From contig OZ037768.1 of assembly GCA_964035545.1 (NCBI GenBank), positions 17,045,875 to 17,109,874 of the forward strand: a stretch of DNA of 64,000 bases, given 5' to 3'. The position numbers and the translations under genes were made by a program. The stretch is from Bugula neritina. Taxonomy: Eukaryota; Bryozoa; Gymnolaemata; Cheilostomatida; Bugulidae. The notes beneath the pieces were generated by a model. The model ran no database searches, had not been told where the DNA came from, and saw only the letters and a program-made list of their open reading frames with translations. Below are positions 1 to 63,394 of this stretch, piece by piece (position 1 is the first letter of the stretch; each line of letters opens with the position of its first letter).

Positions 1-3000
1 TGGAATCTCAAGTTTCCCAATTGCAGAGCGAGAATCTTGAACTGAAAGCCAAAGTTGCAGAACATGACTTGAAAATATCCAAAATTGAGGACAATCCCAG
101 AGCAATCTATGCTACTGACAGCAAACTAACCAGAAGGAAGAGATCAGCCAGTGGTACAATTGACTACGGCTACACTGATGACAGACACAAGTATGCCTAT
201 GGAACAGGTGGCGGAGGTATGTTTGCTGCCCTAAACATTTTCTAATATGGCACATCATCCAACAGCAATTTCGGTAATCCGACAAAACTTCTTGTGGTAT
301 TTAAATGAATAGTGTTATTGAGAGTGTGCAAATTTTTACCATATACTCAACTAATTTTATGATTTTAAATTTTATTAGCATGCGCCTGCCCAGCTGGTCC
401 ACAAGGTCCCCCAGGTCCTCCAGGTCCCAAAGGAGACAGAGGAGATGCTGGTAGACCAGGTTACAATGGTCAACCAGGTCCAGTTGGAGCCACTGGTACA
501 GCTGGAGTTGGTCTCAAAGGACAAAGAGGTGCCACTGGTTCCACTGGTGTTCGAGGACAAGGATCTGTTGGTGCACCAGGATATGATGGTAAAGATGGTC
601 TGCCTGGAGTACCTGGTAGAGATGGAGATACCGGCCCAATGGGAGCACCTGGTGTTCCAGGATATGATGGTAAAGATGGAGCTCCAGGACTACCTGGTCA
701 AGATGGTAACAATGGTTTGCCTGGACGAGATGGTGTTGATGGTCAAGATGGAGAGCCAGGAGCTCGAGGATTACCTGGATATGATGGTAAAGATGGAGCT
801 CCAGGCCCACAAGGCTTGCCAGGACGACAAGGTGAACGAGGATTTGATGGTCAACCAGGAGCAGCCGGAAAAGATGGTGCTCCAGGACCAGCTGGACCTC
901 AAGGTGCTCCCGGAAAAGATGGTACCGATGGTCGACATGGTACAGATGGAAACCATGGTAATGATGGGCAAGATGGACAACCAGGCCAACCAGGAGAACC
1001 CGGACCACAAGGTCAACCAGGACCACAAGGAGGCCGAGGTCATCCAGGAAGAGATGGATCTGATGGTCAACCAGGAGAGCCTGGCAGAGATGGAGTTGAT
1101 GGAGCTCCAGGAGCACCAGGATATGATGGACAAGATGGACAACCAGGACCTTCAGGTCAACCAGGACCACAAGGAGCACCCGGTGAGCGTGGACAAGCAG
1201 GAGCACCAGGAAGAGATGGTGTGGATGGCGCACCAGGTCAGCCAGGAGAAAGAGGATCACAAGGTTCAGCCGGAAGAGATGGAGTTGATGGCCAACCAGG
1301 CCCAGCAGGTAGAGATGGTGTTGATGGCAAACCAGGTGCACCTGGATTTGATGGACAAGATGGTCAGCCAGGACCAGCTGGTCAACCAGGCCAGCCTGGC
1401 TCTCGTGGTGATCAAGGCCCTGCTGGTGCTCCAGGTAGAGATGGAGTTGATGGTCAGCCAGGACAAATAGGCCAAACTGGTGCTCCAGGACAACGTGGTG
1501 AACCAGGAGCACAAGGAGCATCAGGAAGAGATGGCAGTGATGGTCAACCAGGACAACGCGGACCAGCAGGCGCACCAGGTTTAGATGGACAAGATGGTCA
1601 ACCAGGAACACCAGGACAAGCAGGACAACAAGGAGCTGTGGGACCACAAGGAGCTCCAGGACCTCAAGGTGCACCTGGTGCACCTGGAGTAGCAGGAGCT
1701 GATGGATTTGATGGACAAGATGGTCAACCAGGACAAACTGGTGCACCTGGGCAAAGAGGAGAAGCTGGACAACCAGGGGCTGCAGGTAGAGATGGTATTG
1801 ATGGAGCACCAGGACAGCCAGGAAGAGATGGAGTTAATGGTCAGCCAGGACAGCAAGGAGCACCTGGACAAAGAGGACAAGATGGAGCACCTGGACAAAT
1901 TGGTGCACCAGGACAGCAAGGAGCACCAGGAGCACAAGGAGCACCAGGTCAACGAGGACAACAAGGAGCATCTGGAAGCCCTGGAAGAGATGGCAGTGAT
2001 GGTCAAAATGGTCAACCAGGACAACAAGGAGCACCAGGTCAACCTGGTCAAGCAGGTGCTCCAGGACAAGTTGGAGCTCCTGGTCAACAGGGAGCACCAG
2101 GACAACAAGGACAGCCAGGATCACAAGGTGCACCAGGCCAAAGAGGTCAAGCTGGAGCACCAGGACAAGCTGGAGCAGCTGGACAGCCAGGAGCTGCTGG
2201 TCAACCAGGTAGAGATGGTGCTGCTGGACAACCAGGACAACAAGGTGCACAAGGTCAACCAGGTACTCCAGGACAAGCTGGTGCACCAGGTCAATCTGGA
2301 GCACCAGGTCAACAAGGTGCTGCAGGCGCTCCAGGAGCACCCGGACAGAGAGGTCAAGCTGGGCAACCAGGCACAGCTGGACAAGCCGGAGCACCAGGAC
2401 AAGTCGGAGCACCAGGACAAGCTGGAGCACCAGGACGAGATGGACAGGCAGGCGCTCGAGGACAAGCAGGAGCAGCTGGTAGAGATGGAAACAATGGAGC
2501 ACCTGGAGCACCAGGTAGAGATGGCAGCGATGGACAGCCAGGTCAGCCAGGAACATCAGGAGCACCTGGAACCCCAGGCCAACAAGGAGCACCTGGTCAA
2601 CAAGGAGCACCAGGCACACCAGGCCGAGATGGAGCTGCTGGTCAACCCGGTCAACAAGGAGCACCAGGACAAAGAGGTCAAGCTGGAGCACCAGGACAAG
2701 CTGGAGCAGCTGGACAGCCAGGAGCTGCTGGTCAACCAGGTAGAGATGGTGCTGCTGGACAACCAGGACAACAAGGAACACCAGGACAGGCTGGAGCACC
2801 AGGGCAAGCTGGAGCACCAGGACAACAAGGAGCACCTGGCCAACGTGGTCAAGCTGGATCTCCAGGACAGGCAGGAGCAGCTGGTCAACCAGGCGCTGCT
2901 GGACAACCAGGAAGAGATGGTGCCGCTGGTCAACCAGGTCAACAAGGTGCAGCAGGACAACCAGGTCAAGCTGGTGCCCCAGGACAACGAGGCCAAGCAG

Positions 3001-6000
3001 GAGCACCCGGTCAACAAGGAGCACCAGGTACACCAGGAAGAGATGGGGTTGCTGGCCAACCTGGCCAACAAGGAGCACCAGGACAAAGAGGACAAGCTGG
3101 AGCACCAGGTCAAGCTGGAGCACCAGGACAAGCTGGAGCACCTGGTCAAGCCGGACAAGCAGGTCAACAAGGGGCACCTGGTCAACAAGGAGCACCAGGC
3201 ACACCAGGCCGAGATGGCGCTGCTGGTCAACCAGGACAACAAGGAGCACCTGGACAAAGAGGTCAAGCCGGATCACCAGGACAAGCTGGAGCAGCTGGAC
3301 AACCAGGAGCAGCTGGTCAACCAGGTAGAGATGGTGCAGCTGGACAACCAGGACAGCAAGGAGCTCCAGGACAGGCTGGAGCACCAGGACAAGCTGGAGC
3401 ACCAGGACAACAAGGAGCACCTGGACAAAGAGGCCAAGCTGGAGCCCCAGGTCAAACTGGAGCAGCTGGACAACCAGGTGCTGCTGGACAACCAGGAAGA
3501 GATGGTGCTGCTGGTCAACCGGGTCAACAAGGTGCAGCAGGACAAGCTGGAGCACCAGGACAAGCTGGAGCTCCTGGTCAAGCTGGAGCACCAGGTCAAC
3601 GAGGACAAGCTGGAGCACCAGGTAGAGATGGTAGCAATGGTCAACCAGGTGCTGCCGGAAGAGATGGAGCACCTGGTCAACAGGGAGCACAAGGTCAACC
3701 TGGTACACCAGGTCAAGCTGGAGCACCAGGTCAACGTGGCGCTGCAGGCACACCAGGACAAGCAGGAGCACCTGGACAGGCTGGAGCACAAGGAGCACCC
3801 GGTCAAAGAGGTCAAGCTGGAGCACCAGGTCAACAAGGAGCAGCTGGACAACCAGGTGCTGCTGGACAACCAGGAAGAGATGGTGCTGCTGGTCAACCAG
3901 GTCAGCAAGGCGCAGCAGGACAGCCAGGTACTCCAGGCCAAGCTGGAGCTCCTGGTCAAGCTGGAGCACCAGGACAACAAGGACAAGCAGGTGCACCAGG
4001 ACAAGCTGGAGCCCCTGGTCAATCTGGAGCACCAGGTCAAAGAGGAGCAGCTGGACAACCAGGTGCTGCTGGTCAACCAGGAAGAGACGGTGCAGCTGGT
4101 CAACCAGGTCAACAAGGAGCACCAGGACAGAGAGGTCAAGCTGGAGCACCAGGACAAGCTGGAGCAGCTGGACAGCAAGGAGCACCCGGAGCACCAGGTA
4201 GAGATGGTGCAGCTGGTCAACCTGGTCAACAAGGAGCAGCTGGTCAACCAGGAACTCCAGGACAAGCAGGAGCACCAGGTCAACGTGGCGCTGCAGGTAC
4301 ACCAGGACAAGCAGGAGCACCAGGACAACAGGGAGCACAAGGTGCACCTGGAAGAGACGGAAACAACGGGCAACCTGGTCAACAAGGAGCTCAAGGACAA
4401 GCTGGAGCACCTGGTCAACAAGGAGCACCAGGCACACCAGGCCGAGATGGAGCTGCTGGTCAACCCGGTCAACAAGGAGCACCAGGACAAAGAGGTCAAG
4501 CTGGAGCACCAGGACAAACTGGAGCAGCTGGACAACCAGGTGCTGCTGGTCAACCAGGTAGAGATGGTGCAGCTGGACAACCAGGACAGCAAGGAGCTGC
4601 AGGTCAAGCTGGAGCACCAGGACAAGCTGGAGCACCAGGACAACAAGGAGCACCAGGCCAAAGAGGTCAAGCAGGAGCACCAGGTGCAGCAGGACAAGCC
4701 GGAGCTCCAGGAAGAGATGGTGCCGCAGGACAACCAGGTTCTGCCGGTCAGCCAGGTAGAGATGGTGCTGCTGGTCAACCAGGACAACAAGGCGCAGCTG
4801 GTCAACCAGGAACACCTGGTCAACAAGGTGCACCTGGTCAACAAGGAGCACCTGGTCAAAGAGGTCAAGCTGGTGCACCAGGACAAGCTGGAGCAGCTGG
4901 ACAACCAGGAGCTGCAGGTCAACCAGGAAGAGATGGATCTGCTGGACAACCAGGACAAGCTGGAGCACCAGGACAAAGAGGACAAGCTGGAGCACCAGGA
5001 CAAGCTGGAGCAGCTGGACAACCAGGAGCTGCAGGTCAACCAGGAAGAGATGGATCTGCTGGACAACCAGGACAACAAGGTGCACCAGGTCAAGCTGGCG
5101 CACCAGGACAACAAGGTCAAGCAGGTGCTCCAGGAAGAGATGGTGCTGCTGGACAGCCAGGAGCCCAAGGACAACCAGGAACACCAGGACAGCAAGGTGC
5201 CCCAGGTCAACGTGGACAAGCAGGTGCCCAAGGACAGTCAGGAGCACCAGGAGTTCCAGGTAGAGATGGTGCTGTTGGACAACCAGGACAACAAGGAGCC
5301 CCAGGAGCTCCAGGAAGAGATGGAGCTAACGGACAGAATGGACAACCTGGAGCCCAAGGCCAACCAGGAACACCTGGACAACAAGGTGCACCAGGATCAC
5401 CTGGCCGAGATGGCAACAATGGCCAACCTGGAACACCAGGTCAACAAGGAGCAGCTGGGCAAGCAGGAGCCCCAGGACAAGCAGGAGCACCAGGTCAACG
5501 TGGTGCTGCAGGCACACCAGGACAAGCAGGTGCACCAGGACAACAGGGAGCACAAGGCGCACCTGGAAGAGACGGAAACAACGGGCAACCTGGTCAACAA
5601 GGAGCTCAAGGACAAGCTGGAGCACCTGGTCAACAAGGAGCACCAGGCACACCAGGCCGAGATGGAGCTGCTGGTCAACCCGGTCAACAAGGAGCACCAG
5701 GACAAAGAGGTCAAGCTGGAGCACCAGGACAAACTGGAGCAGCTGGACAACCAGGTGCTGCTGGTCAACCAGGTAGAGATGGTGCAGCTGGACAACCAGG
5801 ACAGCAAGGAGCTGCAGGTCAAGCTGGAGCACCAGGACAAGCTGGAGCTCCAGGACAACAAGGAGCACCAGGCCAAAGAGGTCAAGCAGGAGCACCAGGT
5901 GCAGCAGGACAAGCCGGAGCTCCAGGAAGAGATGGTGCCGCAGGACAACCAGGTTCTGCCGGTCAGCCAGGTAGAGATGGTGCTGCTGGTCAACCAGGAC

Positions 6001-9000
6001 AACAAGGCGCAGCTGGTCAACCAGGAACACCTGGTCAACAAGGTGCACCTGGTCAACAAGGAGCACCTGGTCAAAGAGGTCAAGCTGGTGCACCAGGACA
6101 AGCTGGAGCAGCTGGACAACCAGGAGCAGCAGGTCAACCAGGTAGAGATGGCGCTGCTGGTCAACCTGGACAACGAGGAGCTGCTGGTCAACCAGGAACA
6201 CCTGGTCAAGCAGGCGCACCAGGTCAAGCAGGTGCACCTGGTCAACAAGGTCAAGCTGGATCACCAGGACAAGCTGGAGCACCTGGACAACAGGGAGCAC
6301 CAGGCACACCAGGACGAGATGGAGCTGCTGGTCAACCTGGTCAACAAGGAGCACCAGGACAGAGAGGTCAAGCTGGTTCACCAGGTCAAGCTGGAGCACC
6401 AGGACAGGCTGGAGCACCTGGTCAAGCAGGAGCACCAGGACAACAAGGCCAAGCTGGAGCACCAGGACAGGCTGGAGCACCAGGACAAGCAGGAGCACCA
6501 GGTCAAAGAGGTCAAGCTGGTACCCCAGGAGCAGCAGGTAACCCAGGAAGAGATGGTGCCGCCGGTCAACCTGGCCAACAAGGTGCCCCAGGACAACAAG
6601 GACAAGCAGGAGCACCAGGACAAGCAGGAGCACCAGGACAAGCAGGAGCTGCTGGCCGAGATGGCTCAAACGGTAGAGATGGTGCAGTTGGCCAACCTGG
6701 CCAACAAGGTGCACCAGGTCAACAAGGACAAGCAGGAGCACCCGGAGCACCTGGCCGAGATGGCAACACAGGAGCACCAGGAACACCTGGTAGAGATGGA
6801 GCAAACGGTCAAGCTGGAGCACCTGGACAACGAGGAGCCGCAGGACAGCCAGGTACCCCAGGACAAGCTGGAGCACCAGGACAAGCTGGCCAACAAGGCG
6901 CTCCAGGTCAAGCTGGAACACCCGGACAACAAGGTGCTGCTGGTCAACCAGGTAGAGATGGTGCTGCTGGACAACCAGGGCAACAAGGCGCAGCAGGTCA
7001 GACTGGAGCTCCAGGACAACCAGGTGCTGCTGGTAGAGATGGTGTTGCTGGTCAACCAGGACAAGCTGGAGCACCTGGACAAAGAGGTCAAGCTGGAGCA
7101 CCAGGACAAGCAGGAGCAGCTGGACAGCCAGGTGCTGCTGGTCAACCAGGTAGAGATGGTGCTGCTGGACAATCAGGTCAAGCCGGACCACAAGGAGCTC
7201 CTGGAACCCCAGGAAGAGATGGTGCAGCTGGTCAGCCAGGACAAGCTGGAGCACCAGGACAAAGAGGTCAAGCTGGAGCACCAGGACAAGCTGGAGCAGC
7301 TGGACAGCCCGGTGCTGCTGGTCAACCAGGTAGAGATGGTGCTGCTGGACAATCAGGTCAAGCCGGACCACAAGGAGCTCCTGGAACCCCAGGAAGAGAT
7401 GGTGCAGCTGGTCAGCCAGGACAAGCTGGAGCACCAGGACAAAGAGGACAAGCTGGAGCACCAGGACAAACAGGAGCAGCTGGACAACCAGGTGCTGCTG
7501 GTCAACCAGGTAGAGATGGCGCTGCTGGACAATCAGGTGCTGCTGGACGTGATGGCAACACAGGTGCTCCAGGTGCACCAGGCAGAGATGGTGCTCCTGG
7601 TCAACCAGGACAGCAAGGAGCTCCAGGACAAGCTGGAGCACCAGGACAAGCTGGAGCTCAAGGACAACAAGGTGCAGCTGGTCAAAGAGGACAAGCTGGT
7701 GCACCAGGACAAGCCGGTAGAGATGGAGCACCTGGTCAACCTGGTGCTGCAGGCAGAGATGGTGTGAATGGAAGAGATGGACAATCTGGACAGCCCGGTC
7801 AAGCTGGAGCACCAGGCCAAGCTGGTGCCCCAGGACAAGCAGGCTCAAGAGGACAAGCAGGTGCACCAGGTCAAGCTGGAGCACCAGGACAGGCTGGAGC
7901 ACCTGGACAACAGGGAGCACCAGGCACACCAGGACGAGATGGAGCTGCTGGTCAACCTGGTCAACAAGGAGCACCAGGACAGAGAGGTCAAGCTGGAGCA
8001 CCAGGACAAGCTGGAGCACCAGGACAAGCTGGAGCACCTGGTCAAGCAGGAGCACCAGGACAACAAGGTCAAGCTGGAGCACCAGGACAGGCTGGAGCAC
8101 CAGGACAAGCAGGAGCTGCAGGCAGAGATGGTGCTAATGGACAAGATGGAAGACAAGGAGCTCCAGGAAGAGATGGTGCTAATGGTCAACCAGGACAACA
8201 AGGTGCCCCAGGACAACAAGGACAAGCAGGAGCACCAGGACAAGCAGGAGCACCAGGACAACCAGGAGCTGCTGGCCGTGATGGCTCAAACGGAAGAGAT
8301 GGTGCCAATGGTCAACCTGGCCAACAAGGAGCCCCAGGACAACAAGGACAAGCAGGAGCACCAGGACAAGCAGGAGCACCAGGTCAAGCTGGAGCTGCAG
8401 GCAGAGATGGTGCTAATGGACAAGACGGAAGACAAGGAGCTCCAGGAAGAGATGGTGCCAATGGTCAACCAGGACAGCAAGGAGCTCAAGGAGCACCAGG
8501 ACAAGCAGGAGCCCCAGGACAAGCAGGAGCACCTGGTCAAGCTGGAGCTCAAGGAGCACCAGGACAAGCAGGATCACCAGGACAGGCTGGTGCACCTGGA
8601 CAAGCCGGAGCACCAGGACAAGCAGGCGCTCCAGGACAACAAGGCCAAGCTGGAGCACCAGGACAAGCTGGAGCACCAGGACAAGCAGGAGCTGCAGGCA
8701 GAGATGGTGCTAATGGACAAGATGGAAGACAAGGAGCTCCAGGAAGAGATGGTGCTAATGGTCAACCAGGACAACAAGGTGCCCCAGGACAACAAGGACA
8801 AGCAGGTGCACCAGGACAAGCAGGAGCACCAGGACAACCAGGAGCTGCTGGCCGTGATGGCTCAAACGGAAGAGATGGTGCCAATGGTCAACCTGGCCAA
8901 CAAGGTGCCCCAGGACAACAAGGACAAGCTGGAGCACCAGGACAAGCAGGAGCACCAGGTCAACCTGGAGCCGCAGGCAGAGATGGTGCTAATGGACAAG

Positions 9001-10769
9001 ATGGAAGACAAGGAGCTCCAGGAAGAGATGGTGCCAATGGTCAACCAGGACAGCAAGGAGCTCAAGGAGCACCAGGACAAGCAGGAGCTCCAGGACAAGC
9101 AGGAGCACCAGGACAACATGGCCAAGCTGGAGCACCAGGACAAGCTGGAGCACCAGGACAAGCAGGTGCAGCTGGACCAGCAGGTTCACCAGGACAACAA
9201 GGAGCACCTGGTGCCCCTGGTAGAGATGGAGTCAATGGCCAAAATGGTCAACAGGGCGCACAGGGAGTTGCTGGACAACCTGGTGCACCAGGTCAAGCAG
9301 GTGCAGCAGGACAACCTGGTACTCCAGGACAAGCAGGAGCACCTGGTCAAGCAGGACCAGCTGGAGCACCAGGACAAGCAGGAGCACCTGGCCAAGCAGG
9401 ACCAGCTGGAGCACCAGGACAACACGGAGTTGCTGGTGCCCCAGGAAACGCTGGAAGAGATGGCGTTAATGGACAAAATGGTCAAGCTGGTGCACAAGGT
9501 CAACCTGGACCAGCTGGACCAGCTGGAGCTCCTGGTAGAGATGGAGTCAATGGTGCCCCTGGACATCCAGGAAGTAATGGCGCACCAGGTGTTCCAGGAA
9601 GAGATGGTGTAAATGGACAAGCAGGAGTTAACGGACAACCAGGAGCACAAGGACCAGCTGGAGCACCAGGAAGCAATGGTGTTAATGGCCAGCAAGGAGC
9701 TCCAGGACCTGCTGGAAGAGATGGCAATCCTGGTGCACCAGGACGAGATGGCGCTAACGGACAAGCTGGACCTGCTGGACCCGCAGGTGCTAATGGACAA
9801 AATGGTGCCGCAGGCCGTGATGGAAATCCAGGTCCAGCAGGACCTGCAGGACAGCCTGGAGCACCAGGAGTTAATGGACAGAATGGACAAGATGGTCTTC
9901 CAGGAGTACCTGGTAGAGATGGAGTCAATGGTCAATCAGGTCAAAGAGGAGCCCAAGGACAACGAGGAGATACTGGAGCACCAGGACCTCAAGGTGCTGC
10001 AGGTGCACCAGGCCAGCATGGTGCCCCAGGTAGAGATGGAAATACTGGAGCACCAGGAAATGATGGAGCTCAAGGAGCACCAGGAGTACCAGGATATGAT
10101 GGTCAAGATGGACAACCAGGACAGCAAGGAGCACCTGGACCACAAGGTCCTCAAGGTAACTCTGGTCCAGCAGGACCTGCAGGACGAGATGGTCAAAATG
10201 GAGCACCAGGAGTACCAGGATATGATGGTCAAGATGGTAGACCCGGCCCACAAGGAGCACCTGGACCACAAGGAGCACGAGGAAACACAGGGCAAGCAGG
10301 GGCACGTGGTAGCGATGGCAAAGATGGCGCACCTGGTGTACCAGGATATGATGGCCAGCCAGGAGCCAACGGTGAACGTGGACCCGCAGGACCTGCAGGA
10401 CGAGATGGTAATCCAGGAGCACCAGGACACGATGGTGCACCAGGCGATGCTGGAGCACCCGGAGTAGATGGTGCACCTGGAGTGCCCGGAAGAGATGGCT
10501 ATGATGGACTACCAGGAAAAGATGGTGAACGAGGACCAGCAGGACCAGCAGGAGCAGCTGGCCATGATGGCAGACCAGGACCCCAAGGAGCACCAGGTGT
10601 TGATGGAGTAGATGGCAAAGATGGTTTACCAGGATTTGATGGACTACCAGGAGCACCTGGTCTAGATGGTGTGGATGGTGCACCAGGCCAAACTGGCGCC
10701 ACCGGACCAATCAGAATTATCGGCAAACCAGATCCAAATGCAGTAGGCGGTTATGCCAAAAGAAGATAA
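1..10769 (+). CDS. Giant transmembrane-type collagen A (5' partial; two exons visible: 1-216 and 379-10769)
   Basis: The window opens inside an exon (codons in frame from base 3) and at least 3,534 residues are visible. Counting from the first visible residue, 1-31 form a heptad coiled coil (core V4, L7, N11, L14, V18, I25, I28), the usual trimerisation device of membrane collagens. RRKR at 44-47 is a furin-type site. A Tyr-rich spacer (Tyr 55, 57, 64, 66) and CACP at 73-76 follow. The exon ends GGAG|gtatgt and resumes after ttattag at 379, phase 1. The second exon encodes about 1,146 Gly-X-Y triplets, broken only by two 2-residue slips near the start, and ends in a 19-residue tail (IRIIGKP...YAKRR). 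There is no fibrillar C-propeptide or NC1 domain. The centre is dominated by GQA, GQQ, GAP and GQP; the first and last few hundred residues are more charged (GYDGQDG, GRDG). By analogy with collagen B, the missing 5' exon should carry a transmembrane segment. Phylum-specific name unknown. Confidence 0.93.
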
Positions 10770-11039
10770 ATGACATAATATTTCTTATTACCTTATAATT
10801 TCATTACTATGTATACAATCAAGCACAGAGTGGAGGCTTGAACTGAAAGGACATCACAGCATTATTTTTATATTGTCCCATTTCTGTAAATATTTATGGT
10901 AATCAGACTTTAGGATAGTTATGGTTATAACTACATCAGTTGAGACATTATAATAATGTTCTACACTATTCATATTTTTGTTGCGTTATTGTTATGTTAT
11001 TATTTTAGTCCAGAACTGCTCAAAACCTAATACAGGTTC

Positions 11040-11045
11040 AATAAA
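11040..11045 (+). terminator. Probable poly(A) signal of collagen A
   Basis: An AATAAA hexamer lies 271 bp after the collagen A stop codon, the first canonical signal I see downstream. No GU-rich downstream element was verified. Confidence 0.4.
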
Positions 11046-12755: not shown

Positions 12756-12759
12756 GTAG

Positions 12760-13850
12760 TTAATTCTACTTTTGGTGGTTTTCCCAAAATGCTAAATAGA
12801 AAAAGTCTCCCCAGAATGTACTGGGCCTGAGAATATTGGTGGGAGAGCTGTTGAAGCCAGTCTTTGATGAAAATGTAATCACTAGCATGGAGGACCTTGA
12901 AAAGATGTTGACTAAGATTTCAGAGAGCTCAAGAACAGCAAAACTGTGGGTCATGTGCTTTATTAGACCAATTTTTACCATCAACACCCACATCAAAGCT
13001 GATAGAGAAGGAGACTGGGCCTTACACCTAGCAATGGAAGAGGAAATGCATTTATATCTGTATAGCATGTAGGTCATGCCACAAGATGTAAGGATTGAAT
13101 TCGTGACTGGTAACCACACAATGCATCATAAACTCGGCCAGCTCAACAGCATCTGGTCAAACATGACCATTGAGGTGACCTTTGTGAGATGTGGTCACAG
13201 CAAGGGGGAATCATTGGCATCACCAATAAAACTGAAATTGTCAAGGTGTGGGTGTATAGTACTTCTGCATGCAACAAGATACAGTAAGGCCTCAGTGACA
13301 TCAGAGATGAGTCTGAAATAAATGCTTCCACTACTCATAAGGAAGAGATGCAATCAAGAATCCAATCTGATTCAAGGGACAGAAAGTTTGTCAAAGGGAA
13401 GATTGAACTCTGCAATGTCCTACTCGAAGAAGGATGCCACCCAGTTGCTCTTGTCAATATTGAAACAGAGAAAGTCATCAGTTATTCAGCAATTATTATT
13501 AACAATATTTTTGTCATAGGTAAAGCATATATACAAGAATTTAAAGTGAACTAGTCGGAGGGGTTAACTAAATCCTTGTCATCTAAAGTGAAGACAATGG
13601 TATCATCTCAAAGGCATATTAAGGTTTCTAATACCACTGTATGTGATACTGAAGTCATATATGCCCGAACCATTGTACTCAAGCAGACCAAGAATTTGAA
13701 TGTGGGCTCTTTAATAGCTCATAAACTTGCAGCATTGTCACCTTCTACATTCAAGGAAACAGGGAAAATAAGAAAAACTAAGACCAAGTTAATTTTAAAA
13801 AAATCTGTGAAAATTAAGTTTTCAGAACAGTCTGCGACAAGAAGATAAGA
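12760..13850 (+). pseudogene. Decayed copy of a multicopy invertebrate gene family of unknown function
   Basis: Reading through stops and frame changes, consecutive plus-strand segments (about 12836-13072, 13076-13260, 13348-13500, 13576-13848) look like successive parts of one protein. Landmarks are GDWALHL, a partly preserved region with LNSIWSNM and FVRCGHSKG, a segment containing SDSRDRKFVKGKIELCN, then CDTEVIYAR and AHKLAALSPSTF. From memory this pattern resembles uncharacterised multicopy proteins of mollusc and cnidarian genomes (intact relatives read like WNGIWSDM, MRYGHGPGG, VYDTxVIYSR, LLSHELAPVPTSMF). In-frame stops near 13070 and 13319 and frame shifts show it is dead. It runs directly into a LINE 3' end. 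Function unknown; transposon-linked spread is an inference. Confidence 0.55.
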
Positions 13851-13859
13851 AAATTCCCA

Positions 13860-14370
13860 CCAAGTTGGAGGTTCTGTTATCCATGATGGCAATAAAAACT
13901 ACACTGATGTATGGATATCAGACATGGCCACTGACTCAAAGACAAGAAGGCAAGATAAGTGTAACTGAGATGAGGATGCTTCGACACATTTACAATATAG
14001 AGTGGGAAGACCATGCAACATATGATAATATAAGAGAGGAGGCCAAAATAAAAACTATCGCAATAGGCATGAGGAGGAAACCTCTTCAATGGTATGGACA
14101 TATGCGCAGAAGAGATAGGGAGGAAGATATTATAATGGTGGCTGAGATGAAGATACAGAGAAAGAGAGGGAGGCCAAAGAAAAGGTTAATGGATCCAATG
14201 AAGGATGACATACTGAAATGTGGCCTTTCAGATGAAGATGTTGACGACAGAATCAGATGACACTCTCTGATAGCACTTGGTGCCCTGCAAAATCGACACT
14301 TCCTAGACCACAGCACACTAGGTGAGAAAGTTCGAGACAAATCCCTATAATGGACAATTTTCTGCCGTCC
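13860..14370 (+). mobile_element. LINE (non-LTR retrotransposon) 3' end, 5'-truncated
   Basis: The open frame 13865-14260 has the C-terminal signature of endonuclease/reverse-transcriptase LINE proteins: YGYQTWPLTQRQ, EMRMLRH, LQWYGHMRRRD, then KRGRPKKRLMDPMKDDI and a final DRIRWH region broken by a stop at 14260. The reverse-transcriptase palm is missing, so this is a 5'-truncated dead copy. A related, differently truncated copy lies at 63395-64000. Family (RTE-like or similar) is inferred from this C-terminal pattern only. Confidence 0.85.
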
Positions 14371-15055: not shown

Positions 15056-15128
15056 GCCGCGCTTAAATGTTGCAGGACCTCTTCCCAGTTTTTTTGCTAT
15101 GCATAGTTAGAATTAACAAATTCTATTA

Positions 15129-17152: not shown

Positions 17153-17153
17153 T

Positions 17154-17186
<33 letters not shown>

Positions 17187-17187
17187 G
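17153..17187. repeat. (AT)n microsatellite
   Basis: A run of alternating TA broken once by TG. No other content. Confidence 0.9.
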
Positions 17188-17672: not shown

Positions 17673-17689
17673 TTTTCCTTTGTATTACT

Positions 17690-22690: not shown

Positions 22691-22696
22691 GAGTAT

Positions 22697-22703
22697 AAAA
22701 CAG
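22697..22703 (+). promoter_or_regulatory. TATA box of collagen B
   Basis: TATAAAA lies about 30 bp upstream of a pyrimidine/TCAGATT initiator-like stretch near 22728-22735, followed by a short leader with a good splice donor. Position and spacing suit a strongly regulated structural-protein gene. Confidence 0.6.
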
Positions 22704-22727
22704 CTGTGTAATCAAGATACTTCAGAT

Positions 22728-22797
22728 TCTCTCCTCTGAATTTCAAAGAAGAGAGTTCCAGAATATCATCTTCTCCATCTGTAACACTACACAGAGG
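22728..22797 (+). other. Untranslated leader exon of collagen B (5' boundary estimated)
   Basis: About 70 nt between the inferred start site and the donor ACAGAGG|gtaagc. It contains no ATG. The next acceptor, tgatttgtag at 23331-23340, opens the first coding exon 7 nt before its ATG, giving a 543-bp leader intron. Confidence 0.5.
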
Positions 22798-23347
22798 GTA
22801 AGCATGGACTTTTTTCACTATCTGGGAGAGTTAATATAAACCTGGTTGTAGATAATATAATATTAGCTATCTTTAGGTTTATTAATCAAGAAAAGTCAAA
22901 TAAAATTTAGTCAATTTATTTTCATGAGTTGAAACAAATATTTGAAATTTAACTTGATGGTTAAAAAAGAATAATTTTTTAAAGGGTAATATGAAAATAT
23001 TATTAGTAAAATCATACACTTGCTTATTTATTCTACACTCAAAAACTTGTTTTTGACTTTATAGGAAACGTTTTGCTGAATTTTTTAAGCACTAGACTAC
23101 ATGGCTGAGTGTAGGAATTACCAAAATTAGCCAAAATTTTCAAATAGAACATTACTTTAGGAAAGACTAAAAATTTCTATAACCTTTTATTCCTTAAAAT
23201 TTCTAAGCTATTAAAAAACTATATGGCAGATTATTTAATGAATTTTATTATATACAAACAGTATTCTAAAATTCCACGTGAAATAAAATTATTAACTGCC
23301 ATTAGACAATTGTAATACTGATTGTATACTTGATTTGTAGAGTAAAG

Positions 23348-26300
23348 ATGAAGGGGGACTTAGAGTATGCAGGACATGCTCATTCTAGCAAAGAATCAGA
23401 CCGAAGGTCACCTGTGATATCAGGACTTGGAGTTATTGCTATCACAGGTTTACTCATTACAGTAACCACAGCTGGTACTATATTCGGAGTTCATCTACTC
23501 AACAGAATTGATGACCTGCAGGTATTTATTTCATATAGAATTATTTGCAATAGTTAATACATACATTTCAACTTGACATTCCTAAAACAAAAAAGAGAAA
23601 ATTCTGTAAATAATATGCTTATTGATAATTTCAATTTCTGTACATCTTTTAAACATTAATTTTAAATTAAATCTTGCGGGTAAGCAAACACAAAAATAAA
23701 GAGCGGACCTATAATGTTTTAGACAAGGAATATGGAATTAGAACTGAAGGTAGCATACAAAACGGATATTGAGCAGCAAAATGAGCGAATTAATAATTTG
23801 GAAAAGAAAACAACCGAACACCTGAGGAAAAGGAGAGCAAATTACGGCGATGAATATGGATATGCGGCTGGAAATGGCCCTGAATATGGAGGTAAGTAGT
23901 TGACTAGCAGAAACTAATAATCCTGAGTATATGTGCAATTTTCTATTTGATTAGCTATCTAAACTAACTTTTATATAAAACCAGAACTTTGGCTTAAGTC
24001 ACAGAATGTACTTATCATGGTGTTATTCAATTATTTTAGCTACAGGTTGCAGCTGCCCAGCTGGACCACCAGGTAGAGATGGCCCCAGAGGACCACCTGG
24101 ACCCAAGGGTGACCGTGGAGATGCAGGACGCCCAGGAAGCAATGGGGTACCAGGCAGAATTGGTGCTACTGGTGCATATGGTGCAAGAGGAGCTACTGGA
24201 GCAACTGGTGTTCGAGGTGTTGGTGTACCTGGAGAAGATGGTAGAGATGGAGTGCCTGGAAGAGTTGGATCAACCGGAGCTCCTGGAGTACCAGGTAGAG
24301 ATGGATATGATGGCACACCAGGACCAGTTGGCCAGCCAGGAGAACCAGGAAGAGATGGTGTTGATGGCAACCATGGCCGTGATGGAAACCACGGTAATGA
24401 TGGTGAAGATGGACGTCCAGGAGAACCAGGCAGACCAGGAGAGCCAGGAGAGCGAGGAGAACAAGGAAGCCCAGGCAGTCCTGGCAGAGATGGTTCCCCA
24501 GGATCACCTGGTTACGATGGTCAAGATGGAACTCCAGGTAGAGATGGATCACCAGGAGAAAGAGGACAAGATGGTCAACCTGGTCAAACAGGCGCACCTG
24601 GATCACCTGGATATGATGGACAAGATGGACAACCTGGTGAACCAGGAAGAGACGGTGAACCTGGAAGAGATGGGCAACCAGGTGAACGAGGACAAGATGG
24701 ACAGACAGGTGCTCCCGGTCAACGAGGAGAACCAGGAGTTTCAGGTTCACCAGGTCGAGATGGAGCACCAGGTGAGCGTGGACAAGATGGTGCACCTGGA
24801 TCACCAGGTGTACCAGGCTACGACGGACAAGATGGACAGCCAGGCGAACCAGGCAGAGATGGAGCACCAGGTGAACGTGGACAAGATGGAGCAGCAGGTG
24901 TGCCAGGCAGAGATGGATTCGATGGACAAGATGGACAACCAGGTGCACCAGGCAGAGATGGATCACCTGGAGAGAGAGGTCAAGATGGATCACCAGGTAG
25001 AGATGGAAATCCTGGTGAAAGAGGACAAGATGGAGCTCCAGGAGCACCAGGAGTACCAGGATTTGATGGGCAAGATGGACAGCCAGGAAGCTCTGGTAGA
25101 GATGGAGCACCAGGACAAAGAGGGGAGCCAGGAATTGATGGACAACCTGGCTCACAAGGAGCACCAGGAAGAGATGGATCTCAAGGAGCAAGAGGAGAAC
25201 CAGGACAGAGAGGTGAGCCAGGACAACGTGGAGAACCAGGAGCTTCAGGTAGAGATGGTTCACCAGGAGCACCAGGTAGAGATGGAACACCTGGAGATCG
25301 AGGTCAAGATGGCGCTCCAGGATCACCAGGAAGAGATGGTTTCGATGGACAAGATGGGGCTCAAGGAGCACCAGGCCAAAGAGGAGAGAGTGGACAGCCC
25401 GGCAATGATGGGAGACCCGGATCACCTGGAGAACGTGGACAAGATGGCGCTCCTGGTTCACCAGGAAGAGATGGATTTGATGGACAAGATGGGGCCCCAG
25501 GTGCTCCAGGAAGAGATGGATCTCAAGGACAAAGAGGAGAACCAGGACAGAGAGGTGAGCCAGGACAACGTGGAGAAGCTGGTACACCAGGAAGAGATGG
25601 GTCACCAGGATCCCCAGGTCAAGATGGTCAACCAGGTGCTCGAGGAAATGATGGCCAAGATGGCCAACCAGGATCACCAGGAAGAGATGGAGCTCCAGGA
25701 TTACGAGGAGAAGCTGGCCAACGAGGTGAGCCAGGGCAGCGTGGAGAATCAGGTAACCCAGGAAGAGATGGCTCACCAGGATCTCCAGGTCAAGATGGTC
25801 AACCAGGTGCACGAGGAAATGATGGGGCTCCAGGATCACCAGGAAGAGATGGGTCACAAGGAGCAAGAGGAGAACCCGGACAAAGAGGAGAACCAGGACA
25901 ACGTGGAGAGTCAGGTAACCCAGGAAGAGATGGCTCAACAGGATCTCCAGGCAGAGATGGAGCACCAGGTGAACGTGGGCAAGATGGTGCACCAGGTTCT
26001 CCCGGCCAAGATGGACAACCAGGTGCTCGTGGATTTGATGGACAAGATGGCCAAACAGGATCACCAGGTAGAGATGGAGCGCCAGGCTCAAGAGGTGAGC
26101 AAGGCCAACGTGGTGAACCTGGTACACCAGGAAGAGATGGGTCACCAGGATCTCCAGGTCAAGATGGTCAACCAGGTGCTCGAGGAAATGATGGCCAAGA
26201 TGGCCAACCAGGATCACCAGGAAGAGATGGAGCTCCAGGATTACGAGGAGAAGCAGGCCAACGAGGTGAACCAGGGCAGCGTGGAGAATCAGGTAATCCC

Positions 26301-29300
26301 GGAAGAGATGGCTCACCTGGATCTCCAGGTCAAGATGGTCAACCAGGTGCACGAGGAAATGATGGGGCTCCAGGTTCACCAGGAAGAGCTGGTTTTGATG
26401 GACAAGATGGGGCTCCAGGAGCACCAGGTAGAGATGGAGCACCAGGACAAAGAGGCGAACCAGGCCAACGTGGAGAGGCTGGCCAGCAAGGTCAATCTGG
26501 GCAACCAGGCCAAAGGGGAGAACGTGGAGAGCCTGGAACTGCCGGAAGAGATGGGTCACCAGGAGCACCAGGACAAACTGGAGCACCTGGAGACAGAGGA
26601 CAAGATGGAAACCCCGGAAGAGACGGTGCTCCAGGACAACGAGGACTGGATGGTAGTCCAGGTGCACCAGGTGCATCAGGATTTGATGGACAAGATGGTG
26701 CACCTGGAGCTCCAGGCAGAGATGGGTCACCTGGTGCAAGAGGAGAGCCTGGTCAAAGAGGTGAGCCAGGCCAAAGAGGTGAGCAAGGACAACGTGGAGA
26801 ACCAGGAACTCAAGGTAGAGATGGTGCATCTGGATCACCAGGTAGAGATGGTGCACCAGGAGAACGTGGACAAGACGGTGCTTCAGGAAGAGATGGCTCA
26901 CCAGGCGCCCCAGGACAAGATGGTCAACCAGGTGCACGAGGATTTGATGGTCAAGATGGACAACCTGGAGCACCAGGAAGAGATGGAGCTCCAGGATCAC
27001 CAGGACAAGATGGTCAGGCTGGTAACCCAGGTAGAGACGGATCACCAGGCGAGCGTGGACAAGATGGCGCTCCTGGATCACCAGGAAGAGCTGGTTTTGA
27101 TGGACAAGATGGGGCTCCAGGATCACCTGGAAGAGATGGATCTCCAGGCCAAAGAGGAGAAGCAGGACAAAGAGGTGAACCAGGACAACGTGGAGAAGCA
27201 GGAACACCAGGAAGAGATGGTTCACCTGGATCTCCAGGTAGAGATGGTGCAGCTGGTGAGAGAGGACAAGATGGTTCTCCAGGAGCACCAGGTTCATCAG
27301 GATTCGATGGTCAAGATGGTGCACCAGGAGCTCCAGGCAGAGATGGGTCACCTGGTGCTAGAGGAGAGCCAGGTCAAAGAGGAGAACCAGGTCAAAGAGG
27401 AGAACCTGGACAGCGTGGTGAGGCTGGCAATGCAGGTAGAGATGGTGCTCCAGGCAGAGATGGAGCAGCTGGAGAACGTGGACAAGATGGAAATCCTGGA
27501 AGAGATGGTGCTCCAGGACAACGAGGACTGGATGGTAGTCCAGGTGCACCAGGTGCATCAGGATTTGATGGACAAGATGGTGCACCAGGAGCTCCAGGCA
27601 GAGATGGGTCGCCTGGTGCTCGAGGAGAACCAGGTCAACGAGGTGAGCCAGGTCAAAGAGGCGAGCCAGGACAACGCGGAGAACCAGGAACTCAAGGTAG
27701 AGATGGTTCACCAGGAGCAGCAGGTAGAGATGGCGAACGAGGTGAGCGTGGACAAGACGGTGCTTCAGGATCACCAGGAAGAGATGGTGCACCAGGATCA
27801 CCAGGTCAAGATGGTCAACCAGGTGCTCGTGGATTTGATGGTCAAGATGGAGCTCCAGGATCACCAGGAAGAGATGGATCTCCTGGATCACCAGGACAAG
27901 ATGGTCAACCAGGCGCACGAGGAAATGATGGCCAAGATGGCCAACCAGGATCACCAGGAAGAGATGGAGCTCCAGGATCTCCAGGACAAGATGGTCAACC
28001 AGGAGCCCGTGGATTTGACGGACAAGACGGTGCACCTGGAGCACAAGGTAGAGATGGATCACCTGGTGCAAGAGGTGAACCAGGCCAGCGTGGAGAACCC
28101 GGACAACGCGGAGAATCAGGAACACCAGGTAGAGATGGTGCACCTGGATCACCAGGAAGAGATGGAGCCCAAGGAGAACGTGGACAAGATGGTCAACAGG
28201 GTAACCCTGGAAGAGACGGAGCAACAGGCGACCGTGGACAAGATGGCGCTCCTGGATCACCAGGAAGAGCTGGTTTTGATGGACAAGATGGGGCTCCAGG
28301 ATCACCAGGAAGAGATGGAGCACCAGGACAAAGAGGAGAACCAGGCCAACGTGGAGAGCCTGGCCAACAAGGTCAATCTGGGCAACCAGGCCAGAGGGGA
28401 GAACGTGGAGAGCCAGGAGCTTCTGGAAGAGATGGATCACCAGGAGCACCAGGACAAACTGGAGCACCTGGAGATCGAGGACAGGATGGAGCACCTGGTA
28501 GAGATGGTGAACGTGGAGAACGAGGTCAAGATGGTGCTCCTGGATCACCAGGAAGAGCTGGTTTTGATGGACAAGATGGGGCACCAGGATCACCAGGAAG
28601 AGATGGAGCTCCAGGATCTCCAGGACAAGATGGTCAACCAGGTGCACGAGGATTTGATGGCCAAGATGGAGCACCAGGATCACCAGGAAGAGATGGAGCT
28701 TCAGGATCTCCAGGACAAGATGGTCAACCTGGTAACCCAGGTAGAGATGGAGCACCAGGTGAGCGTGGACAAGATGGCGCTCCTGGATCACCAGGAAGAG
28801 CTGGTTTTGATGGACAAGATGGGGCTCCAGGATCTCCAGGTAGAGATGGATCACCTGGTGTAAGAGGTGAACCAGGCCAAAGGGGAGAACCTGGCCAACA
28901 AGGCCAATCTGGGCAACCAGGTCAAAGAGGAGAACGCGGAGAAGCAGGAGCTCCAGGTAGAGATGGTTCACAAGGATCACCAGGCCAAACTGGATCACCC
29001 GGAGAACGTGGACAAGATGGCGCTCCTGGTTCACCAGGAAGAGATGGTTTTGATGGACAAGATGGAGCTCCAGGCTCCCCAGGAAGAGATGGATCTCCAG
29101 GAGCAAGAGGAGAACCAGGTCAACGTGGTGAGGCAGGACAATCCGGTAGAGATGGCTCACCAGGTCAGAGAGGTGAACCAGGACAAAGAGGTGAGCCTGG
29201 TCAAAGAGGTGAGCCAGGTCAGCGTGGTGAGGCTGGTGCACCAGGAAACCCAGGCCGTGACGGTTCACAAGGAGCACCTGGTAATGACGGATCACCAGGT

Positions 29301-32300
29301 GAACGTGGGCAAAGCGGATCTCCAGGTAGAGATGGATCTCCAGGATCACCAGGACAAGATGGTCAACCAGGAGCTTCTGGAAACCCAGGAAGAGATGGTG
29401 AAAATGGAAGAGATGGAGCACCTGGAAACCCAGGAAGAGATGGCTTTGATGGACAAGATGGAGCTCCAGGAGCACCAGGAAGAGATGGTTCCCAAGGAGC
29501 AAGAGGAGAACCAGGTCAACGCGGAGAGTCTGGAGCACCAGGCAGAGATGGTTCACAAGGATCACCAGGCCAAACTGGATCACCTGGAGAACGTGGACAA
29601 GATGGCGCTCCTGGTTCACCAGGAAGAGATGGTTTTGATGGACAAGATGGAGCTCCAGGCTCCCCAGGAAGAGATGGATCTCCAGGAGCAAGAGGAGAAC
29701 CAGGACAGAGAGGTGAGCCAGGACAACGTGGAGAACCAGGTAACTCCGGAAGAGACGGTGCACCTGGATCACCAGGTAGAGATGGAGCACCTGGTGATAG
29801 AGGACAAGATGGAGCACCAGGTTCACCTGGAAGAGATGGATCATCAGGATCTCCAGGCAGAGATGGCTCACCCGGAGCACCAGGACAAGACGGCCAACCA
29901 GGCGCAAGAGGAAATGATGGACAAGATGGACAGCCCGGTTCACCAGGAAGAGATGGTGCACCAGGATCTCCAGGTCAAGATGGTCAACCAGGTGCTCGTG
30001 GATTCGATGGTCAAGATGGAGCTCCAGGATCTCCAGGAAGAGATGGAGCACCAGGAGCAAGAGGAGAGGCTGGTCAGCGAGGAGAAGCAGGACAACGTGG
30101 AGAACCAGGTAACTCCGGAAGAGATGGTGCACCAGGATCACCAGGTAGAGATGGTACACCAGGTGATAGAGGACAAGACGGAGCACCAGGATCTCCCGGA
30201 AGAGATGGTTCACCAGGATCTCCAGGTCAAGATGGTCAACCAGGTGCTCGTGGATTCGATGGTCAAGATGGAGCTCCAGGATCTCCAGGAAGAGATGGAG
30301 CACCAGGAGCAAGAGGAGAGGCTGGTCAGCGAGGAGAAGCAGGACAGCGTGGAGAACCAGGTAACCCTGGAAGAGATGGTGCACCAGGATCACCAGGTAG
30401 AGCTGGAGAACGAGGTGAGCGAGGACAAGATGGAGCACCAGGCTCTCGTGGTCAAGATGGACAACCAGGTGCAAGAGGAAATGATGGACAAGATGGACAG
30501 CCCGGTTCACCAGGAAGAGATGGTGCACCAGGATCTCCAGGTCAAGATGGTCAACCGGGCGCTCGTGGCTTTGATGGTCAAGATGGAGCTCCAGGATCTC
30601 CAGGAAGAGATGGAGCACCAGGAGCAAGAGGAGAGGCTGGTCAGCGAGGAGAAGCAGGACAGCGTGGAGAACCAGGTAACTCCGGAAGAGATGGTGCACC
30701 AGGATCACCAGGTAGAGATGGTACACCAGGTGATAGAGGACAAGACGGAGCACCAGGATCTCCCGGAAGAGATGGTTCACCAGGATCTCCAGGTCAAGAT
30801 GGTCAACCAGGCGCTCGTGGCTTTGATGGTCAAGATGGAGCTCCAGGATCTCCAGGAAGAGATGGAGCACCAGGAGCAAGAGGAGAGGCTGGCCAGCGAG
30901 GAGAAGCAGGACAGCGTGGAGAACCAGGTAACTCTGGAAGAGATGGTTCACCAGGATCACCTGGTAGAGATGGAGCACCAGGTTCTCCTGGACAAGATGG
31001 ACAACCAGGTTCTCCTGGACAAGATGGACAACCAGGTGCCCGTGGATTTGATGGTCAGGATGGGGCTCCTGGATCACCAGGAAGAGATGGAGCACCAGGA
31101 GCAAGAGGAGAGGCTGGTCAGCGAGGAGAAGCAGGACAGCGTGGAGAACCAGGTAACCCCGGAAGAGATGGTGCACCAGGATCACCAGGTAGAGCTGGAG
31201 AACGAGGTGAGCGTGGACAAGATGGATCCCCAGGATCTTCAGGTAGAGATGGTTCTCCAGGAATCAGAGGCGAGCCAGGACAACGCGGAGAACCAGGTAC
31301 CCCAGGAAGAGATGGAGCCAATGGTGAACGTGGTCAAGATGGCGCACCAGGATCTCCAGGAGCTAGAGGATTTGATGGACAAGATGGTGCACCTGGATCA
31401 CCAGGTAGAGATGGTGCTCGAGGAAATGATGGACAAGATGGCGCTTCAGGATCACCAGGAAGAGATGGTGCACCAGGATCACCAGGTCAAGATGGTCAAC
31501 CAGGTGCACGAGGCTTTGATGGTCAAGATGGAGCTCCAGGATCACCAGGAAGAGATGGATCTCCCGGATCACCAGGACAAGATGGTCAACCAGGAGCACG
31601 AGGAAATGATGGCCAAGATGGCCAAACAGGATCACCAGGAAGAGATGGTGCACCAGGATCTCCAGGACAAGATGGACAACCAGGAGCACGAGGCTTTGAT
31701 GGACAAGATGGTGCACCAGGATCACCAGGTAGAGATGGATCACCTGGTGCAAGAGGTGAGCCAGGACAACGTGGTGAGCCAGGACAAAGAGGTGAGACTG
31801 GACAACAAGGTCAATCAGGATCACCAGGTAGAGATGGGGCTCGAGGAAATGATGGACAAGATGGCGCCCCAGGATCACCTGGAAGAGATGGTGCACCAGG
31901 ATCTCCAGGACAAGATGGACAACCAGGTGCACGAGGCTTTGATGGTCAAGATGGAGCACCAGGATCACCAGGAAGAGATGGATCTCCAGGATCACCAGGA
32001 CAAAGAGGTGAGACTGGACAACAAGGTCAATCAGGATCACCAGGTAGAGATGGGGCTCGAGGAAATGATGGACAAGATGGCACCCCAGGATCACCAGGAA
32101 GAGATGGTGCACCAGGATCTCCAGGACAAGATGGACAACCAGGTGCACGAGGCTTTGATGGACAAGATGGTGCACCAGGATCACCAGGTAGAGATGGAGC
32201 AAACGGAGAACGTGGTCAGGATGGAGCACCAGGTTCACCAGGCAGGGATGGAGCACCAGGACCAAGTGGATTTGATGGACAAGATGGTGCACCAGGAGCA

Positions 32301-32963
32301 CCAGGAAGAGATGGAGCACCAGGATCATCTGGTAGAGATGGCTCACCAGGAGAACGAGGTCAAGATGGTAACCCCGGATCACCTGGACGAGATGGAGCAC
32401 CAGGAGCACCAGGGGAACGAGGAGCTGATGGTTCACCTGGTAGAGATGGAACACCAGGATATGATGGACAAGACGGTCTTCCAGGAGCTCCTGGACAAGA
32501 TGGAGCACCTGGTTCACCTGGTAGAGACGGAGAACCAGGACAACGAGGATATGATGGAGCACCTGGAGCACCTGGAGCACCTGGAGAAAGAGGACAAGAT
32601 GGTCAATCAGGTAGAGATGGAGCAGCTGGCAACCCAGGACAAGATGGACAACCAGGCAGAGATGGTGCACCTGGACCATCAGGTTACGATGGCCAAGATG
32701 GTCAACCTGGTGAACCAGGTAGAGATGGAGCACCTGGGCCACGCGGTGAAACTGGAGCTCCAGGAAGGGACGGAGCACCTGGTCAACGTGGCGAAACAGG
32801 TCAACAGGGTACACGTGGACAAGATGGCATACCAGGAAGAGATGGAGCACCCGGCAAAGATGGCTATGATGGGCTACCAGGTCAGACTGGTGCTACAGGA
32901 CCTATTCGTATAGTGCAAGGGAATGGTAGTGGAGTTGCTGCACGTGGTGGCTACGGTCACTAG
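23348..32963 (+). CDS. Giant transmembrane-type collagen B (complete, 3,088 aa; exons 23341-23521, 23723-23891, 24040-32963)
   Basis: Spliced reading frames agree at both junctions (phase 0, then phase 1). Residues 1-21 form a short cytoplasmic tail with RR at 19-20. Residues 23-48 are hydrophobic ([12 protein letters not shown]...), a type II transmembrane anchor. Residues 52-90 form a coiled coil (I54, L57, N61, L64, V68, then I74, I81, L84 after a stutter). RKRR at 93-96 is a furin-type site. A Tyr-rich spacer (Tyr 99, 103, 105, 113) and CSCP at 118-121 lead into about 982 Gly-X-Y triplets, then a 19-residue tail (IRIVQG...GGYGH). The repeat is dominated by [15 protein letters not shown] and GQR. 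After furin cleavage the collagen would be shed. Tandem neighbour and paralog of collagen A. The layout matches nematode cuticle collagens and membrane-associated collagens (XIII/XXIII/XXV), but is far longer than nematode ones. Role in cuticle or matrix is inferred. Confidence 0.95.
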
Positions 32964-63390: not shown

Positions 63391-63394
63391 AAAG

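What the first reader, a model, noticed from the sequence alone, without database searches (positions are those of the whole stretch)
1..32963. Tandem pair of giant shed-transmembrane collagens with a nematode-cuticle-like plan in a non-nematode animal
Both genes encode coiled coil, furin site, Tyr-rich spacer, CxCP and about 1,000-1,150 nearly unbroken Gly-X-Y triplets, with no C-propeptide; gene B also shows a type II anchor. This is the layout of nematode cuticle collagens (about 300 aa) and of membrane collagens XIII/XXIII/XXV, but roughly ten times nematode length. DPCD, a motile-cilium gene, lies in the same window and argues against a nematode. At about 0.286 nm per residue the rods would be near 0.98 and 0.84 micrometres. 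This may be a distinct family of cuticle or matrix collagen.
Basis: partly seen in the sequence, partly recalled or inferred. Interest (0 to 1): 0.88.

Follow-up and report, generated by a model that had tools for sequence, protein, structure and literature searches.

The report
Giant membrane-tethered collagens in a bryozoan
A moss animal (the bryozoan Bugula neritina) carries two neighbouring genes for very long collagens that appear to be made as membrane-anchored, enzyme-releasable rods, a building plan best known from roundworm skin, and the same genome holds smaller genes with the same plan.

Summary
The window is chromosome 4 of Bugula neritina (Bryozoa), so it is indeed a non-nematode. 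Two head-to-tail genes encode 3,594 aa (A) and 3,088 aa (B), with 1,145 and 982 Gly-X-Y triplets almost unbroken in single exons of 10.4 and 8.9 kb. Gene A's anchor exon lies just left of the window; 171 of its 174 coding nt match gene B's. Both proteins read: predicted type II anchor, helical linker, furin-type site (RRKR/RKRR), Tyr-rich spacer, CxCP, rod, short tail, no C-propeptide. At least seven further loci (C to I, chromosome 2) show this plan, some with only about 25 triplets. Pfam's nematode cuticle-collagen N-domain is not matched and MACIT hallmarks are absent from A and B. Common descent of A/B with C to I is not shown by sequence. In both giants Tyr is confined to the two ends (GYD four times at each) and absent from 2,500 to 3,000 interior residues. 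Most likely these are shed apical-matrix (cuticle) collagens cross-linked through their ends; tissue and cross-links are untested. Giant length has annelid precedent (8,859 aa). New variant of a known kind.

The parts
1..216 (+). Gene A exon 3 (starts 4 bases left of the window): linker helix, furin-type site, Tyr-rich spacer
   Evidence: GT donor at 217
132..143 (+). Gene A furin-type site RRKR before Ser
379..10769 (+). Gene A exon 4: CACP, 1,145 Gly-X-Y triplets, tail [21 protein letters not shown], stop
381..392 (+). Gene A CACP motif, holding the only two Cys of the protein
579..1127 (+). Gene A N-end zone with four GYD triplets (residues 199-381)
10092..10505 (+). Gene A C-end zone with four GYD triplets (residues 3370-3507); no Tyr between residues 380 and 3371
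4224..4958 (+). Gene A internal direct repeat, 735 bp, 98.0% identical to a copy 1,215 bp downstream
22692..22797 (+). Putative TATA-like motif and 5' non-coding exon of gene B (suggested only)
   Evidence: reading; not tested
23341..23521 (+). Gene B exon 2 (ATG at 23348): cytosolic N-terminus and signal anchor; 171 of 174 coding nt identical to gene A's off-window exon
23414..23500 (+). Gene B predicted transmembrane segment, residues 23-51
23723..23891 (+). Gene B exon 3: helical linker, furin-type site, Tyr-rich spacer
23825..23836 (+). Gene B furin-type site RKRR before Ala
24040..32963 (+). Gene B exon 4: CSCP, 982 Gly-X-Y triplets, tail [21 protein letters not shown], stop
24303..24824 (+). 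Gene B N-end zone with four GYD triplets (residues 203-376)
32457..32870 (+). Gene B C-end zone with four GYD triplets (residues 2921-3058); all 31 GFD triplets lie between the zones

Best explanation
A and B are structural collagens of a bryozoan, made as type II membrane proteins (N-terminus in the cytosol). Shown from sequence: anchor exon, linker, furin-type site, Tyr-rich spacer, CxCP, giant Gly-X-Y rod, short tail, tandem arrangement. Inferred: three chains zip up from the N-terminal helical linker, a proprotein convertase cuts at RRKR/RKRR, and the freed rod (about 0.98 or 0.84 um) carries a new Tyr-rich N-terminus and one CxC pair for disulphides. Rods are then joined at their ends by oxidised Tyr (GYD zones plus spacer) and Cys, not along their length and not through interior Lys, in an extracellular coat most likely at the apical surface (cuticle). 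The long interior grew by in-frame duplication of whole Gly-X-Y blocks.
For: Gene models and motifs. Helix up to the cut site in B. Same order of anchor, RxKR, Tyr, CxC and Gly-X-Y in seven more loci, C to I. In C. elegans 56 of 173 cuticle collagens have a signal sequence and the rest (117) are predicted type II, 109 of 173 have RxxR, and BLI-4 promotes their secretion (PMC10538796, abstract and passages); links there form at Tyr rather than Lys (PMC11304992, passages). Largest Tyr gap 2,991 of 3,462 (A) and 2,547 of 2,971 (B), reached by 0 of 100,000 random placements each; no Lys in A 450-3445 or B 138-3053. Peroxidase family PF03098: 87 exon-level matches on six chromosomes; tyrosinase: 1 match. 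Internal repeats up to 735 bp at 98%; the 28 offsets printed (of 55 found) are all multiples of 9 bp.
Against: No expression, proteomic or tissue evidence. The positive-inside bias is weak. The coiled-coil score is not above shuffles for B (535 of 2,000), F (901) or H (258), though it is for A (11), C (11) and D (20). Tyr confinement may simply reflect amplification of a Tyr-free interior unit; it is not 31 independent events. Peroxidases have many other roles. Bryozoan cuticle is classically described as chitin plus protein (recalled), and I saw no paper assigning collagen to it in the listings.
Confidence: 0.5

Rival explanations
1. Same molecules, but deposited basally: they form interstitial or basal matrix such as the stiff tentacle matrix, funiculus or membranous sac rather than cuticle.
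For: Vertebrate type II furin-cleaved collagens (MACITs) are not cuticular (recalled; shedding described in PMC4678570, passages). A charged rod such as B (296 K/R and 424 D/E) would suit a hydrated matrix (inference).
Against: Rods without interior Lys and with Tyr ends fit an oxidatively tanned coat better than a lysyl-oxidase matrix (inference). No localisation data either way.
Confidence: 0.25
2. They are bryozoan MACITs (collagen XIII/XXIII/XXV orthologues) that expanded.
For: Predicted type II anchor, helical linker, juxtamembrane furin-type site. I raised this rival slightly (0.05 to 0.07) on noticing it.
Against: MACITs have interrupted helices and a highly conserved C-terminal 34 residues with a Trp, and were not identified in Lophotrochozoa (PMC4678570). 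A and B have almost no interruptions, no Trp at all, and end GGYAKRR / GGYGH.
Confidence: 0.07
3. They are true homologues of nematode cuticle collagens, i.e. a cuticle-collagen family older than the nematodes.
For: Same order of parts, small members in the same genome (F, 23 triplets in the rod exon), Tyr and CxC flanking the helix.
Against: Pfam PF01484 (Col_cuticle_N) is not matched at E up to 1 for A and B nor up to 10 for C, D, E, F, G and the B anchor (HMMER's filters drop most weak matches), and has no match in the whole genome at E 0.001 (none of its 14 control genomes rang, so this is weak). Only two Cys, no C-terminal Cys cluster, in A and in B.
Confidence: 0.15
4. The Tyr end zones have no function: A and B grew by amplifying a Tyr-free unit between old flanks, and Phe for Tyr in B was fixed once and copied.
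For: Interior is made of in-frame duplications; smaller gene C has Tyr all along its helix.
Against: A and B have quite different interiors, yet both exclude Tyr and both have four GYD at each end; only about the last 60-90 residues of the C flank are alike above the control maximum, so the end zones are not simply one copied block.
Confidence: 0.45

Closest known systems
Nematode (C. elegans) cuticle collagens, SQT-3 type
   Same: Type II anchor or signal, N-terminal RxxR convertase site, Cys next to the helix, Tyr available for cross-links (PMC10538796, PMC11304992, passages)
MACITs: collagens XIII, XXIII, XXV and COL-99
   Same: Type II anchor, helical linker, juxtamembrane furin site, shedding design
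   Different: A and B not interrupted; conserved W-containing C-terminus absent from A and B; MACITs not identified in Lophotrochozoa (PMC4678570)
Annelid giant collagens (Alvinella, Paralvinella, Eisenia)
   Same: Lophotrochozoan, very long Gly-X-Y rods, Pro common at Y
   Different: Up to 8,859 aa; in the five giants Pro at X is 33-40% of counted repeats (PMC12403961 Table 1) against about 4% (45) in A and about 1% (9) in B; N-terminal plan of the annelid proteins not available to me
Fibrillar collagens (types I-III, V, XI)
   Same: Long uninterrupted helix
   Different: A and B have no C-propeptide, presumed N-terminal nucleation, and a membrane anchor

Membership tests
Collagen superfamily | Extended Gly-X-Y repeats | tested here: met
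   1,145 and 982 triplets; PF01391 on N-terminal pieces: B E 1.8e-8 over cut-off, A 1.3e-4 under cut-off; C-terminal pieces 3e-12 and 2.1e-19
Nematode cuticle collagens | Col_cuticle_N domain (PF01484) | tested here: not met
   genome search had no positive control
Nematode cuticle collagens | N-terminal RxxR convertase site | tested here: met
   RRKR and RKRR; cleavage not tested
Nematode cuticle collagens | Three Cys clusters around two Gly-X-Y regions | tested here: not met
   only two Cys, both in CxCP, in A and in B; feature as described in PMC11304992
Nematode cuticle collagens | Secreted by epidermis into cuticle | not testable with these tools
   no expression data
MACIT (XIII/XXIII/XXV) | Type II transmembrane anchor | tested here: met
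   hydropathy and charge; prediction only, charge bias small
MACIT (XIII/XXIII/XXV) | Juxtamembrane furin site | tested here: met
   cleavage itself not tested
MACIT (XIII/XXIII/XXV) | Several collagen domains with interruptions | tested here: not met
   two (A) and one (B) minor interruptions near the N end
MACIT (XIII/XXIII/XXV) | Conserved W-containing C-terminus | tested here: not met
   no Trp in A or B against the description in PMC4678570; gene F ends SWKP, not examined further
Annelid giant collagens | Sequence similarity of end domains | not tested
   no annelid sequences reachable; protein database off
Bryozoan loci C to I (same plan) | Anchor, RxKR, Tyr, CxC, Gly-X-Y in order | tested here: met
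   9 loci A to I; linker exon read in all but E (for I); D to I read by eye, not fully modelled; J looks degenerate
Bryozoan loci C to I (same plan) | Common descent with A/B by sequence | tested here: inconclusive
   profile of D to I: 130 and 708 of 1,000 full shuffles reach A and B, 2 reach C (172 with the anchor kept); helix starts A-C 372 and B-C 765 of 800 background windows reach the score, A-B 0 and C-D 0

The most novel reading that the evidence does not exclude
Bryozoans, and perhaps lophotrochozoans generally, build an apical coat from a distinct class of membrane-tethered, convertase-shed collagens ranging from about 25 to over 1,100 triplets, in which the longest are end-cross-linked micrometre rods whose Tyr is restricted to the two ends. 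The nematode cuticle-collagen plan would then be either ancestral to protostomes or a striking convergence.
Probability: 0.3. Interest if true: 0.8.

Novelty: new variant of a known kind. Interest (0 to 1): 0.6.

Why it matters
It brings a shed, membrane-anchored collagen plan, described for nematode cuticle and for MACITs (the latter reported as not identified in Lophotrochozoa), into Bryozoa, with a size range of roughly 45-fold between genes of one plan if gene F ends where its frame does. It makes testable whether annelid, bryozoan and nematode cuticle collagens share an origin, and offers natural micrometre rods with chemically distinct ends as a materials model.

Tried and rejected
Homologues of the end domains in public proteins: not possible, the database was switched off; not asked again. 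Nematode Col_cuticle_N: no match. NCBIfam on N-terminal pieces of B and F: mainly bacterial collagen-like adhesins far under their cut-offs, i.e. Gly-X-Y similarity. PDB with A's N-terminal 139 residues: 9 chains at E 0.23-0.73, nothing meaningful. A profile of D to I against A, B and C: no support for common descent of A/B with them, and helix starts agree. Triplet autocorrelation for a fibril-like period (lags 1-199): no dominant lag; highest values 0.18 (A) and 0.13 (B) against a base of about 0.08. Conserved C flank: above the control maximum only for about the last 60-90 residues. Literature on bryozoan collagen genes: (listings from a library of open papers) showed no paper describing these genes; this is not proof of absence. 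The heptad score is my own and uncalibrated. First model of gene C had a one-base splice error, corrected. The CxCP pattern scan missed gene D because an intron splits it, so its negatives are weak.

Full report
What organism. The genome holding the window (215,847,546 bases, 295 contigs) has contigs of 35,640,107, 33,575,671 and 24,795,343 bases for C1, C2 and C4; C9 is 10.9 Mb and C10 to C14 are each under 50 kb. A 15,248-base contig is mitochondrial. Its gene order as I read it from the translated frames (genes named by eye, no search), cox1, atp6, nad3, nad2, cox2, cob, nad4L, nad4, nad5, nad1, cox3, on one strand, matches Table 1 for Bugula neritina (PMC2678162, section 6). The Darwin Tree of Life assembly tzBugNeri2.1 has 9 chromosomes, of 35.64, 33.58, 32.42 and 24.8 Mb for the first four, and a 15.25 kb mitochondrion (PMC11480708, abstract, outline and passages). 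Its totals (216.00 Mb, 320 scaffolds) differ slightly from those held. I take the window to be B. neritina chromosome 4, 17,045,875-17,109,874.

The two genes. Gene A's first coding exon lies outside the window at C4:17,045,532-17,045,705. Spliced A is 3,594 aa, spliced B 3,088 aa; every border used has GT and AG and the frames join. Both share: a 58-residue anchor exon, a linker, a furin-type site, a Tyr-rich spacer, CxCP, the rod, then [11 protein letters not shown] and 16 more residues. The anchor exons differ at 3 of 174 coding nt, all within the last nine, while a nucleotide alignment of the flanks runs only about 8 bases into the upstream intron and 3 into the downstream one, beyond a shared 7-base leader. 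That is either recent gene conversion confined to the exon or constraint on the nucleotides; I cannot tell which.

The rod. A has 1,145 triplets, led by [13 protein letters not shown] has 982, led by [12 protein letters not shown]. From CxCP on, A is nearly neutral (167 K/R, 165 D/E) and B acidic (296 K/R, 424 D/E), so equal partners in one heterotrimer are unlikely (inference). Pro at Y is 433 (A) and 409 (B); Pro at X only 45 and 9, unlike the five annelid giants of PMC12403961 (section 12). The interiors consist of in-frame repeats: up to 735 bp at 98% (A) and 578 bp at 95.5% (B); all 28 offsets printed, of 55 found, are multiples of nine bases (which scanned only multiples of three).

Tyr at the ends. 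In A, Tyr occurs up to residue 380 and again from 3371; in B, up to 375 and again from 2922. GYD occurs eight times in each protein, four near each end; B's 31 GFD all lie between residues 407 and 2858, A has four GFD, at 286, 454, 574 and 3550. Random placement never gave such gaps (0 of 100,000 for each), but that control ignores that the interior is amplified repeats, so it shows a pattern and not selection. Lys is missing from A 450-3445 and B 138-3053. Gene C, smaller and of the same plan, has Tyr throughout.

Others with the plan. Single-protein searches of the genome gave: C, chr2 33,081,104-33,084,817, modelled as 913 aa in five exons; D (minus strand, anchor from 33,066,961 down; REKR, CQCP) and E (plus strand, 33,071,216; RTKR, CYC) beside it; F and G at 29.645 and 29.651 Mb with 23 triplets in F's rod exon plus two in the exon before; H and I at 29.640 and 29.634 Mb; and J at 2.37 Mb, whose Gly frame looks broken, probably a pseudogene. 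All nine of A to I have a Tyr between the RxKR-type site and the CxC; a linker exon was read in all but E. Nine is a lower bound, and only A, B and C are fully modelled. Parts of one other collagen cluster (L020, L021, L022, L040) showed no CxCP in a pattern scan that also missed D. By sequence, A and B are related to each other (helix start: 0 of 800 background windows reach the score) and C to D (0 of 800), but A-C (372 of 800), B-C (765), B-D (470) and A-D (724) are not above background, and a profile of D to I does not single out A (130 of 1,000 shuffles reach it) or B (708). I therefore speak of one plan in two sequence groups, not of one proven family.

How it probably works. Anchor plus site make a shed collagen the simplest reading. 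The linker of B is predicted as one helix that stops just past the cut site (single sequence, monomer, mean pLDDT 78), although a crude heptad score does not support a coiled coil in B, F or H. In C. elegans, convertase BLI-4 promotes secretion of such collagens (PMC10538796, abstract and passages) and links form at Tyr, proposedly through a peroxidase and a dual oxidase (PMC11304992, passages). B. neritina has many animal-peroxidase exons (87 matches) and one tyrosinase match. Steps not shown: topology, trimerisation, cleavage, tissue, cross-linking.

Known or new. Neither the nematode cuticle nor the MACIT membership test is passed by A and B. One loose end: gene F ends SWKP, and WKP is a C-terminal triplet reported for invertebrate MACITs; I think this is chance but could not compare sequences. 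Annelid giants set a precedent for length. I found no description of these bryozoan genes in the listings, which cover open papers only. Verdict: real, a new variant of shed transmembrane collagens; the cuticle role is plausible and untested.

Noticed in passing
C4:17045532-17045705 (just left of the window) and window 23348-23521: Anchor exons of A and B are 171/174 identical with the identity ending near the exon borders while introns have diverged: exon-confined conversion or nucleotide-level constraint.
   Followed up: partly
window 369-10769 and 23979-32963: Very long additional open frames on both strands over the collagen exons (e.g. 2,024 aa in another + frame, 1,301 aa on -), probably a by-product of the repeat.
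   Followed up: no
window 35491-36170: Minisatellite of about 34 bp (104 bp higher order), 19.5 copies, 89% matches.
   Followed up: no
window 52784-53056 (-), 58669-58986 (-), 56448-57044 (+): An SRAP-domain exon (HMCES-like by name recalled), a CTLH-domain exon (GID8-like by eye), and the DPCD gene.
   Followed up: partly
window 63239-63904 and 13811-14257: Fragments resembling a non-LTR reverse transcriptase by eye; weak RVT_1 match for the first (E 0.0063, under cut-off), none for the second.
   Followed up: no
C1:30180000-30246000 (L020-L022, L040): Another cluster of long collagens with open frames up to 865 codons; one ends beside an EGF-like segment, read by eye.
   Followed up: no
C9:8063658-8137279 and C3:1186418-1240933: Apparent tandem arrays of animal heme peroxidase exons.
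   Followed up: no
C2:2366300-2368300 (L046): Probable pseudogene J of the anchored collagen group, with a broken Gly frame.
   Followed up: partly
L042 (C2:29644700-29647700): Small gene F ends SWKP; WKP is a C-terminal triplet reported for invertebrate MACITs.
   Followed up: no
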